In this document: piece by piece, positions 6,913-18,716 of the stretch | Layout of the letters: every line of letters starts with the position of its first letter | Position numbering within the stretch: the first letter of the stretch is position 1 | Assembly (NCBI RefSeq): GCF_013816785.1 | Contig: NZ_JACDDV010000015.1 | Span: forward strand, 1 to 39,339 | From: Sphingomonas sp. | GTDB lineage: Bacteria > Pseudomonadota > Alphaproteobacteria > Sphingomonadales > Sphingomonadaceae | DNA length: 39,339 nucleotides | Reading direction: 5' to 3' | Made by a program: the position numbers and the translations under genes | Notes under the pieces: generated by a model | Seen by the model: the letters and a program-made list of their open reading frames with translations, nothing else | Database searches by the model: none | Told to the model about the DNA's origin: nothing

Positions 6913-7002
<90 letters not shown>

Positions 7003-14838: not shown

Positions 14839-15594
14839 ATGAGCCTCGACCGCCTCGTCGCCATCATGAAACGGCTCCGCGACCCGATTGACGGGTGCGA
14901 ATGGGATAGCGTGCAGATTTTCGCGACGATCGCGCCCTACACGATCGAGGAAGCCTATGAGGTCGCTGATGCGATCGAGCGTGACGACATGGAAGCGCTC
15001 GCCGACGAGCTCGGCGATTTACAACTCCAGGTCGTGTTTCATACGTGCATGGCCGAGGAAGCAGGCCATTTCACCCTGGCCGATGTGCTGCAGAGGATTT
15101 CTGACAAGCTTGAGCGCCGCCATCCGCACATTTTCGGCGATGCCGCCGAAGGCGGCCATCATTTGTGGGAGCAGATCAAAGCCGAGGAACGCGCCGCCTG
15201 CCCCGACAAAAGCGCGCTCGCCGGCGTCGCCATGGCGCTCCCTGCCCTCGAACGCGCCGCCAAGTTACAGAAACGCGCTGCGCGGACCGGATTCGACTGG
15301 CCCGATATCGATGGCCCCAAGGCCAAGATACTCGAGGAACTCGAGGAGATCTCCGAAGCGTCGCCCGAGGAGTTGGAGGACGAGGTCGGTGACCTGCTGT
15401 TCGCTGCGGTCAACTTCGCACGACATCTCAAGATCGATCCCGAAGAGGCACTGCGTAAGGCCAATCGCAAGTTCGAGCGGCGCTTCCGGGTGATCGAATC
15501 GGCACCCGGCTTCGAGACCATGAACCTAGATGAAAAAGAAGCGCTATGGGCTGCCGCTAAAGCCGCTGGTAGCGCGCCCAATTCTCCGGGCTGA
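14839..15594 (+). CDS. mazG: nucleoside triphosphate pyrophosphohydrolase MazG
   Basis: Hydrolyses (d)NTPs to the monophosphate and pyrophosphate, acting as a house-cleaning enzyme and modulator of starvation responses. The 251-residue protein has two MazG repeats. The N-terminal one contains RLRDPIDGCEWDSVQIF and the metal-binding YTIEEAYEVADAIE...ELGDLQLQVVFH. The second has ILEELEEISEASPEELEDEVGDLLFAAVNFARHL (about 157-191), keeping the ExxE...ExxD acidic pattern. An AGGA six nucleotides before the ATG supports the start. The last 38 nt overlap the 3' end of hflX on the opposite strand. Confidence 0.95.
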   Translation: MSLDRLVAIMKRLRDPIDGCEWDSVQIFATIAPYTIEEAYEVADAIERDDMEALADELGDLQLQVVFHTCMAEEAGHFTLADVLQRISDKLERRHPHIFGDAAEGGHHLWEQIKAEERAACPDKSALAGVAMALPALERAAKLQKRAARTGFDWPDIDGPKAKILEELEEISEASPEELEDEVGDLLFAAVNFARHLKIDPEEALRKANRKFERRFRVIESAPGFETMNLDEKEALWAAAKAAGSAPNSPG

Positions 15595-16855
15595 GCTTGA
15601 CCGCGAGGTGTAACTGTTCGCCCTCTGAACGCTGGTCGAGCACATTGCCGCGCGCATGAAGCCATGCCAACCGCAACCCGTCACCGGCATCGAGCCGTAG
15701 GTGATGCGCAACACCGCCCGAGTGTAGAAAGAGGCTTACCGCCTCGCGCAGCGTGTCGACCCCCTCCCCGGTCAATGCTGAGACCGCGACCACCTCGTTG
15801 CGCCGTCCCGCTTCACCGACCAGCTCGGCGCGCTCGTCACCGCCCAGCAGGTCGAGCTTGTTCCACACCTCCATCCGCGGCGGCGAGCCGTCTTCGTCGA
15901 GTCCGAGCGAGGCGAGCACCGTCTCGACATCGGCAGCCTGCGCCGCGCTGTCGGGATGGGCGATGTCGCGGACGTGAAGGATGAGGTCGGCCGACGACAC
16001 TTCCTCCAAGGTAGCGCGGAAGGCGGCAACCAGTTCGGTTGGCAGGTCGGACACGAAGCCGACCGTGTCGGACAGGATCGCTTTGTCGAAGCCGGGGATT
16101 TTGACCTGTCGCATGGTTGGGTCGAGCGTCGCGAACAGCAAGTCCTGAGCGATCACCGATGCTTGGGTCATGCGATTGAAAAGCGTCGATTTTCCGGCGT
16201 TGGTGTATCCGACGAGGGCGATTACGGGCCACGGCGCCTTCTGCCGGCGGTCGCGGTGGAGGCCGCGGGTGCGCTTGACCTGCTCGAGCTCCTTGCGGAT
16301 GCGCGCCATGCGGTCGCGGATCAGCCGCCGATCCGCCTCGATCTGGGTTTCGCCTGGACCGCCCAGAAAGCCAAAGCCGCCGCGTTGCCGCTCAAGGTGC
16401 GTCCAGCTGCGTACCAGCCGCCCAGCCTGATAATCGAGGTGAGCCAACTCGACCTGTAGCCGTCCCTCGGCGGTGGCGGCGCGCTCGCCGAAAATCTCGA
16501 GGATAAGGCCGGTGCGGTCGATGACCTTGCATTTGGTCATCTCCTCGAGGTTTTTTTGCTGCACCGGGCTCAACGCGGCATCAACGATCAGCAGGCTCGC
16601 CTTTTCCTCCTCGGCCAGCGCGGCAATCTCGTCGATCTGCCCCTTGCCAAGCAAGCTGGCAGGCCGGGCCTGACGCAGCCGGTAGCTGTGCCGCGCGACC
16701 ACGTCGATGCCGATCGCCATGGCGAGGCCGGCAGCCTCCTCGATGCGCGCGTCGAGCGAACGCAGGTTGCCTAGTCCCGCGCGATCCGGAACGACCAGCA
16801 GCGCCCGCTCGCCTCGCGAGACGCCGCCGTCCTCACTGCGGTTGAAGACGCTCAG
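15557..16855 (-). CDS. hflX: GTPase HflX, probable CTG start
   Basis: Ribosome-associated GTPase that splits stalled or heat-damaged 70S ribosomes. The conserved body has [18 protein letters not shown] (about 160-177) and the G domain with GYTNAGKST (216-224), DTVGF and NKLD. The first ATG, at 16720, would remove the conserved N-terminal [10 protein letters not shown]...[13 protein letters not shown] segment. In the open frame upstream of 16720 there is no ATG, GTG or TTG; a stop lies at 16877-16879. A CTG at 16855 is preceded by GGGAG with a 7-nt spacer, overlaps the hfq stop (CTGA), and would give [11 protein letters not shown]... and 432 residues, the normal family length. I therefore place the start there. 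The 3' end overlaps mazG by 38 nt on the other strand. Confidence 0.92.
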
Positions 16856-17328
16856 TCGCCGTCTCCCGCCGGCTCGCTAAGGTCAAGCGGGTGGCCCGGT
16901 TGCAGCGTCGAAATGGCATGCTTGTAGACCAGCTGGACCTGTCCGCCGCGCTCCAGCAGCAACGAGAATTGGTCATGCCCCGCGACCGCGCCCTGCAACA
17001 TAACACCGTTGACCAAGAAGATGGTCATCGCCTCCCGTTCGCGCGCCGCTGCCTGGAGGAACAGATCTTGAAGCGGCGGTCGCTTGCCATTGCCTCCCTC
17101 CGGCAGGGCAAGGTCGCTCGGCGCAATGGCTGGCATGACGGTCGAGATCGCGTGTTTGTAGACGAGCAGTGAATTGCCGTCGCGACGCAACAGGAGCGAA
17201 AAAGGGTCAAACCAGGTAATGATTCCCTGCAGCTTGACGCCTTTCATCAGGAACACCGTGGTCGGGGACTTCGTGCGCCGAATATTGTTGAGGAATTGAT
17301 CCTGTAGACTCAAGCCTTTGTCGGGCAT
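16852..17328 (-). CDS. hfq: RNA chaperone Hfq with two tandem Sm domains
   Basis: Post-transcriptional regulator that binds sRNAs and mRNAs; a normal Hfq is one Sm domain of 65-80 residues forming a hexamer. This 158-residue protein contains two: domain 1 at about 7-66 ([12 protein letters not shown] ... VYKHAISTV) and domain 2 at about 84-145 ([14 protein letters not shown] ... VYKHAISTL), joined by a Pro/Gly-rich linker. Both keep the proximal-site YKHAIST motif (57-63, 135-141). By alignment to E. coli Hfq the rim patch RRER is RRTK in domain 1 and ARER in domain 2; Q41 is Pro in domain 1 but kept in domain 2; K31 is kept in domain 1 but Met in domain 2. Three chains would make a pseudo-hexamer. 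It sits 8 nt after ntrX and overlaps hflX. Confidence 0.96.
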
Positions 17329-17336
17329 TATTTAAA

Positions 17337-18715
<1,379 letters not shown>

Positions 18716-18716
<1 letters not shown>

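What the first reader, a model, noticed from the sequence alone, without database searches (positions are those of the whole stretch)
16852..17328. Tandem-domain Hfq with complementary divergence at RNA-contact sites
The chain carries two Sm domains. Against E. coli Hfq, domain 1 keeps R16/R17 of the rim but has T and K for E18/R19, keeps K31 and has Pro for Q41. Domain 2 has Ala for R16 but keeps R17-E18-R19, has Met for K31 and keeps Q41. Both keep YKHAIST at the proximal face. A trimer of such chains would be a pseudo-hexamer with alternating rim and distal contacts, suggesting subfunctionalisation. Fused Hfqs may be known in related sphingomonads, but the alternating pattern deserves a look.
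Basis: partly seen in the sequence, partly recalled or inferred. Interest (0 to 1): 0.65.

Follow-up and report, generated by a model that had tools for sequence, protein, structure and literature searches.

The report
Double-barrelled Hfq with unequal halves
This gene makes a fused double copy of the RNA-handling protein Hfq, a form already known from sphingomonad bacteria, and comparing many relatives shows that its two halves have been kept different in a fixed way, so three chains would build a ring with two alternating kinds of RNA-contact surface.

Summary
In detail: 16852-17328 (-) encodes one chain with two Hfq domains and the residues named are there. It is the ordinary hfq, between ntrX and hflX, the only one found in the genome. 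Tandem Hfq is known: PMC2877685 (2010) reported it in Zymomonas and six other Sphingomonadales species and asked whether three chains make the ring. Two asymmetries are fixed instead. In the distal-face turn domain 1 is K28/K31 and domain 2 N28/M31 in 157 of 157, while 71 of 71 single-domain Hfqs are N28/K31: one lysine each became two plus none. At proximal position 41 the polar residue sits in domain 1 in 115, both in 3, domain 2 in 39, all of the window's genus set: a side switch. A divergent subclade (11 more) breaks parts of this. Best reading: one fusion, then unequal specialisation in an alternating pseudo-hexamer. The ring and its RNA binding are inferred, not shown.

The parts
16852..17328 (-). 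hfq, tandem (two Sm domains), 158 aa
   Evidence: ORF; PF17209 twice; TIGR02383 and NF001602 above cut-off, NF010691 (tandem model) 214.6 bits against cut-off 270
17128..17307 (-). Domain 1 (residues 8-67): canonical alphaproteobacterial-type Hfq domain
   Evidence: model residues 5..76 align to Caulobacter Hfq 6gwk at Z 10.2, rmsd 1.0 over 71
17074..17127 (-). Linker, residues 68-85
   Evidence: between the two matches; P64 to Q8 spacing 16-27 residues over 177 tandem rows; low pLDDT block 71-80
16885..17073 (-). Domain 2 (residues 86-148): diverged Hfq domain
   Evidence: model residues 82..150 align to Hfq 4mml at Z 9.3, rmsd 1.0 over 67
17269..17280 (-). Domain 1 rim patch R16-R17-T18-K19 (E. 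coli numbering)
   Evidence: three basic residues at 16/17/19 in 157 of 157 distinct tandems
17035..17046 (-). Domain 2 rim equivalent A16-R17-E18-R19
   Evidence: not conserved: RER at 17-19 in 4 of 39 (genus set) and 2 of 118 (rest)
17230..17247 (-). Domain 1 distal-face turn with K28 and K31
   Evidence: K28, K31 in 157 of 157; two basic residues at 27-32
16996..17013 (-). Domain 2 distal-face turn with N28 and M31
   Evidence: N28, M31 in 157 of 157; no basic residue at 27-32
17203..17205 (-). Domain 1 position 41 (Pro; Asn in 118 of 118 tandems outside the genus set)
16969..16971 (-). Domain 2 position 41 (Gln; Leu in 114 of 118 tandems outside the genus set)
17337..18716 (-). ntrX, upstream neighbour (context)
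   Evidence: NF051870 751.6 bits; synteny
15557..16720 (-). hflX, downstream neighbour (context; true start probably further upstream)
   Evidence: TIGR03156 440.3 bits; frame stays open upstream

Best explanation
It is the genome's housekeeping Hfq, in which one intragenic duplication and fusion, in an ancestor of most of the window's family, made a two-domain chain. Three chains most likely close into a pseudo-hexamer with alternating domains (inferred). Both domains keep the base-pocket residues of the proximal face (Q8, F42, K56, H57) and the distal face (F25, Q33, Q52, T61) nearly throughout, so six U pockets and six A/R pockets should remain. Three features are shared unequally: the basic rim patch that promotes annealing is kept only by domain 1 (three of six rim sites); the lysines of the distal turn went from one per domain to two in domain 1 and none in domain 2; and the polar contact at proximal position 41 is carried by one domain, domain 1 in most of the family and domain 2 in the window's genus. 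The sequence facts are shown; the ring, the binding consequences and any benefit are inferred.
For: Two PF17209 domains in one ORF. Single origin: the 26 domain 1 rows and the 26 domain 2 rows each fall on one side of one branch in a 72-row tree, domain 2 stem 0.33 against 0.033 for the main domain 1 clade. In 199 genomes of the family the K28/K31 codon motif is in 166, and in none of the 27 whose match to the query has only single-domain strength (pattern read backwards: no match in the rows listed). In 289 genomes of the class it is in 4, all of the window's family, and the N28/M31 motif is in the same 4. Eight single-domain members of the family read in full are N28/K31/W38/N41, so they look pre-fusion rather than secondary losses. 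Fixed or hardly overlapping differences between the domains at 5 of 59 positions tested: 28, 31, 38, 41, 63. Parsimony changes over 157 tandems: rim positions 100 in domain 1, 247 in domain 2; distal set 11 and 13. Same locus, ntrX-hfq-hflX, in 46 of 48 named tandem loci; the other two, short stretches of 3357 and 3650 bases, have ntrX but no hflX. AF2 model of one chain: pLDDT 87.2, pTM 0.82, two Sm folds. Roles of the sites from passages read: rim arginines, position 41, N28 (PMC10628458; PMC9890229), N28/K31 (PMC8121710), K31 (PMC12262471).
Against: No trimer was modelled or measured. The tree has 62 columns and no starred branch (SH-aLRT 77 for domain 1, 89 for domain 2). A divergent subclade of the window's own genus (11 sequences) keeps K28 in domain 1 but has R31 there, lacks M31 in domain 2 in 8 of 11, has no polar residue (N/Q, or N/Q/R/K in domain 2) at position 41 in either domain in 7 of 11, and has almost no acidic tail, so the pattern can be given up. 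Five of the 39 genus-set members have Arg, not Gln, at domain 2 position 41, and three tandems elsewhere have N in domain 1 and Q in domain 2. In simulations N28 and K31 contact RNA through their backbones, and E. coli K31A has a mild regulatory effect, so M31 may cost little.
Confidence: 0.75

Rival explanations
1. Complementary subfunctionalisation: each domain keeps a different half of the rim and distal contacts and both halves are under selection.
For: Residues in the window as described; position 41 does behave as an either-or site (115 domain 1 only, 39 domain 2 only, 3 both, 0 neither of 157, counting N/Q in domain 1 and N/Q/R/K in domain 2).
Against: Domain 2 rim is variable and often acidic; R17-E18-R19 in 6 of 157; domain 1 keeps all three basic rim residues in 157 of 157.
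Confidence: 0.12
2. The fixed differences are an assembly code, not an RNA-binding split: 28, 31, 38 and 63 make D1-D2 contacts differ from D1-D1 and D2-D2 contacts so that only the alternating ring closes.
For: Positions 38 (W to A/G/S/T/R) and 63 (M to Q) are not among the usual RNA contacts (recalled, no call), yet hardly overlap between domains; both domain folds look intact in the model.
Against: 28 and 31 lie in the distal-face turn reported to touch RNA. No coordinates were available here to ask which of these positions face a neighbour.
Confidence: 0.3
3. Relaxation: after fusion only domain 1 matters; domain 2 is a structural filler whose rim and loop drift.
For: Domain 2 has more changes (791 against 482 over positions 7-66); its rim is lost; the divergent subclade erodes domain 2 further.
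Against: Domain 2 is invariant at Q8, N28, M31, Q33 and F42 in 157 rows, and at K56, H57 and T61 in the 156 rows with letters there, and has Q/R41 throughout the genus set; drift would not leave M31 without a change in 157.
Confidence: 0.15

Closest known systems
Tandem Hfq of Zymomonas mobilis (ZMO0347) and other Sphingomonadales; NCBIfam NF010691/PRK14091
   Same: Two Sm domains in one Hfq chain; PMC2877685 (passages) already asks whether three chains form the ring. Three relatives from the window's family pass the NCBIfam model's cut-off.
   Different: The window's protein scores 214.6 bits against a cut-off of 270; position 41 polarity is swapped relative to the rest of the family. The Zymomonas sequence itself was not read here.
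Single-domain alphaproteobacterial Hfq (Caulobacter, PDB 6gwk)
   Same: Same fold; single-domain loci also lie beside hflX (31 of 32) and often ntrX (20 of 32, some cut by contig ends); same proximal and distal pocket residues.
   Different: One domain; N28, K31, W38 in 71 of 71 and N41 in 70 of 71 collected singles.
E. coli Hfq
   Same: Sm fold and named RNA-contact positions.
   Different: One domain with R16-R17-E18-R19 and Q41; misleading as reference for which residues are 'kept'.

Membership tests
Hfq (Pfam PF17209, NCBIfam TIGR02383) | Score above the curated cut-off | tested here: met
   169.5 bits against 27; 166.5 against 61.7
Hfq (Pfam PF17209, NCBIfam TIGR02383) | Sm fold of the domains | tested here: met
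   Predicted model only; both domains align to solved Hfq chains, Z about 9 to 10
Hfq (Pfam PF17209, NCBIfam TIGR02383) | Six-fold (or pseudo-six-fold) ring | not testable with these tools
   No multimer prediction or coordinates offered
Hfq (Pfam PF17209, NCBIfam TIGR02383) | Binds sRNA and mRNA | not testable with these tools
   Needs bench work
Tandem Hfq NF010691/PRK14091 | Two consecutive Hfq domains in one chain | tested here: met
Tandem Hfq NF010691/PRK14091 | Score above the curated cut-off of 270 bits | tested here: not met
   214.6 bits, 215.9 in the genome search. So not filed as a member of that model; common descent with tandem relatives rests on synteny and on the domain tree

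The most novel reading that the evidence does not exclude
Sphingomonad Hfq is an obligately asymmetric trimeric ring with two classes of RNA site: a fixed 2+0 redistribution of distal-turn lysines made at the fusion, a rim active at three of six positions, and a proximal polar contact that can be handed from one domain to the other, as apparently happened once in the window's genus, perhaps by way of a state in which both domains carry it (such a state is seen in three tandems outside the genus set).
Probability: 0.5. Interest if true: 0.62.

Novelty: new variant of a known kind. Interest (0 to 1): 0.45.

Why it matters
Bacterial Hfq is normally six copies of one subunit, so an ordinary mutation changes all six sites at once. 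A natural chain with two fixed subunit types lets three be changed and three left: it would show whether annealing needs all six rim patches and whether the mRNA (distal) and sRNA (proximal) sites need six-fold repetition. It is also a bacterial parallel to the move from homomeric to heteromeric Sm/Lsm rings in eukaryotes (general knowledge, no call). The position 41 switch gives a natural swap between domains to test.

Tried and rejected
Secondary loss of domain 2 as the origin of single-domain members of the family: rejected for the eight read (L190-L197), because all carry N28 rather than domain 1's K28. Horizontal or extra-copy origin: not supported, one hfq found in the genome and the standard locus. 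Independent tandem Hfqs elsewhere: loci L089, L091 and L092, whose long matches suggested a second domain, have single Hfq domains; in the class search the rows listed show full-length tandem matches only in the window's family, but that list is cut off. Genome G001 (another family) had two Hfq matches; the stretch fetched holds one single-domain gene, the other was not located. Solved tandem Hfq: none in the PDB lists returned, which show the best matches only. Trimer geometry: no coordinates of the model were among the files of the Python box, so whether position 28 of one domain faces position 31 of the next could not be asked. The genus name: not established; looking up Sphingomicrobium followed a guess from genome size and shows nothing.

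Rows dropped or to be known: L181 (genome G253, domain 1 split between two frames) was left out of all residue counts. Of 177 tandem rows, 168 domain pairs are distinct; L001, L002 and L113 are the window itself, and the 26 tandems of the tree include it twice. After the window (L001, L002) and L033 were moved from the 'other' set to the genus set: L033's two domains are identical to those of genus locus L116. One tandem row of the 118 has gaps in domain 2 from position 46 on. The 80 regions fetched were picked by hand from listed rows, so better-scoring genomes are favoured; the 80 named loci are the best of 583. The count of 27 single-domain-strength genomes was made by hand from the E-values (about 1e-24 to 1e-28); 8 of them were read in full. 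Of the 33 genomes without the K28/K31 motif the other 6 are 5 with no hfq match and G094 of the divergent subclade. The tree used for the parsimony counts was made from the same columns.

Papers: passages only of PMC2877685, PMC6563040, PMC8121710, PMC9890229, PMC10628458, PMC12262471, PMC5770649, PMC9797736; the rest are search listings. That the fixed D1/D2 differences were not found in print rests on the nine searches in an open-licence library; a 2002 survey of Hfq phylogeny (recalled) was not held.

Full report
WHAT IS THERE. The minus-strand ORF 16852-17328 (158 aa) holds two Hfq domains: Pfam PF17209 at E 1.1e-50 with two stretches, placed at 17128-17307 and 16885-17073 in the own-genome search, which lists no other Hfq match in the 2.28 Mb assembly. 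The gene lies between ntrX (17337-18716) and hflX (15557-16720), with ntrY beyond. The same ntrX-hfq-hflX order is found in 46 of 48 named tandem loci; the other two are short stretches (3357 and 3650 bases) with ntrX and no hflX. Of 32 named single-domain loci 20 have both neighbours and 31 have hflX; some lack room for ntrX. So this is the standard hfq gene, doubled.

HOW WIDESPREAD. In 246 genomes of the order, the window's family (163 genomes) has two Hfq matches in 155 and one in 8; the seven other families (83 genomes) have one match in 76, two in 1 (G001) and none in 6 (counted by hand). In 61 genomes of the genus, 58 have a match, and it spans both domains in all but G253, whose reading frame is broken. 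In 289 genomes of the class the tandem model passes its cut-off in 3, all of the window's family; the window's own protein gives 215.9 bits, under the cut-off of 270. Tandem Hfq in this order was published in 2010: PMC2877685 states that ZMO0347 has two Sm-like domains, that proteins of six other Sphingomonadales species do too, and that it should be tested whether three proteins form the ring (passages). NCBIfam holds a 176-position model that aligns across both domains.

ONE FUSION. I collected 177 tandem rows and 71 single-domain rows (dropped rows are listed under Tried and rejected). In a tree of 72 domain rows (70 different), all 26 domain 1 rows lie on one side of one branch (SH-aLRT 77) and all 26 domain 2 rows on one side of another (89); the domain 2 stem is 0.33 changes per column and that of the main domain 1 clade (24 rows) 0.033. 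With 62 columns this is weak support, but it agrees with the discrete characters below. Eight single-domain members of the same family read in full have the ancestral residues N28, K31, W38, N41.

WHAT IS FIXED. Of 168 distinct tandem domain pairs, 11 belong to a divergent subclade of the genus and are treated apart. In the other 157, five of 59 positions (7-65) show fixed or hardly overlapping letters (at most 2%) between the domains: 28 (K against N), 31 (K against M), 38 (W against A/G/S/T/R), 41, and 63 (mostly M against Q). Positions 28 and 31 are absolute: 157 of 157. Counting basic residues in the turn 27-32 gives one in 71 of 71 single-domain Hfqs and two plus none in 157 of 157 tandems. 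As a check by DNA pattern, the K28/K31 motif occurs in 166 of 199 family genomes; the 33 without it are 27 with a match of single-domain strength, one divergent tandem (G094), and five with no hfq match. In the class sample K28/K31 and N28/M31 each occur in the same 4 of 289 genomes, all of the family.

POSITION 41. In 118 distinct tandems outside the genus set, domain 1 is N in all 118 and domain 2 is L in 114, Q in 3 and P in 1. In the 39 of the genus set (window included) domain 1 is A 25, P 6, S 4 or T 4 and domain 2 is Q in 34 and R in 5. With N/Q in domain 1 and N/Q/R/K in domain 2 counted as polar: domain 1 only 115, domain 2 only 39, both 3, neither 0; three changes on the tree. With N/Q alone in both domains, the five R rows would be 'neither'.

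THE RIM. At positions 16, 17 and 19 domain 1 is basic at all three in 157 of 157. Domain 2 is basic at all three in 11, at none in 19, and holds at least one acidic residue in 73 of 157 (totals do not depend on the later regrouping). R17-E18-R19 as in the window occurs in domain 2 of 4 of 39 and 2 of 118. In the genus set domain 2 does keep R17 in 33 of 39, and outside it R16 in 88 of 118, so single rim residues survive. Parsimony changes at rim positions 13 and 16-20 are 100 in domain 1 and 247 in domain 2; at the distal set 11 and 13; over positions 7-66 482 and 791. The patch as a whole is therefore kept by domain 1 alone; there is no complementary half.

WHAT BOTH KEEP. Q8, F42, K56, H57 (proximal pocket) and F25, Q33, Q52, T61 (distal pockets) are conserved in both domains apart from a few rows (domain 1 of the genus set: Q33 is T or S in 4 and Q52 is L in 1; domain 2: Y25 in 2; one cut row). 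The AF2 model of one chain has pLDDT 87.2 and pTM 0.82 with two Sm folds; domain 1 aligns best to Caulobacter Hfq 6gwk (Z 10.2, rmsd 1.0 over 71) and domain 2 to Hfq chains such as 4mml (Z 9.3, rmsd 1.0 over 67).

MECHANISM. Shown: the fusion, its locus, the fixed differences. Inferred: three chains close an alternating ring; six base pockets per face remain; the rim works at three of six positions; the distal turn's positive charge alternates two and none; the position 41 contact alternates. The roles of these sites come from passages read: the arginine patch speeds annealing, position 41 contributes a base contact in the proximal pocket and N28 a water-mediated contact in the distal site (PMC10628458); residues 13, 16, 17 and 41 coordinate an RNA hairpin in a Pseudomonas complex (PMC9890229); in simulations N28 and K31 contact ARN repeats through their backbones (PMC8121710), which weakens any argument from their side chains; in E. 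coli K31A lowers total chimera counts to 28% of wild type with a mild effect on regulation (PMC12262471). Whether D1's extra lysine compensates for D2's missing one, or the pair is an assembly code, cannot be told without a trimer structure.

THE DIVERGENT SUBCLADE. Eleven genomes of the genus have a shorter, fast-evolving tandem (43-55% identity to the window over the match). They keep K28 (11 of 11) and have R31 (11 of 11) in domain 1, but M31 in 3 of 11 domain 2s, a two-residue gap in the domain 2 helix, linkers of 16-17 residues, no polar residue at 41 (by the rule above) in 7 of 11, basic rim in domain 1 at all three sites in 4 of 11, and almost no acidic tail. All 11 still have ntrX upstream; hflX is seen in 8 of the 11 short stretches. 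This counts against a universal need for the asymmetry.

VERDICT. I found no account of it in nine searches of an open-licence library, which leaves out most subscription journals.

Noticed in passing
L170-L180 (genomes G094, G165, G246, G212, G154, G170, G235, G153, G151, G287, G216): A subclade of the window's genus carries a fast-evolving, shortened tandem Hfq that has lost most of the acidic tail together with part of the domain 1 rim and domain 2's distal Q33, at the same locus.
   Followed up: partly
15557-16870 (-): The hflX frame stays open upstream of the first ATG (16720) past the end of hfq, so the true start is probably upstream and the listed ORF is short.
   Followed up: partly
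L181 (genome G253): hfq domain 1 is split between two reading frames; sequencing error or a broken gene, not resolved.
   Followed up: no
L103 (titled Bordetella sp.) and L091 (titled Candidatus Marinimicrobia): Both hold alphaproteobacterial-type Hfq; the bins are probably mislabelled or mixed.
   Followed up: no
G001 and G520: Genomes outside the family with two Hfq matches, possibly two hfq genes.
   Followed up: no
6913-7002 (-): tRNA-Ser (tga), the only tRNA gene found in the window.
   Followed up: no
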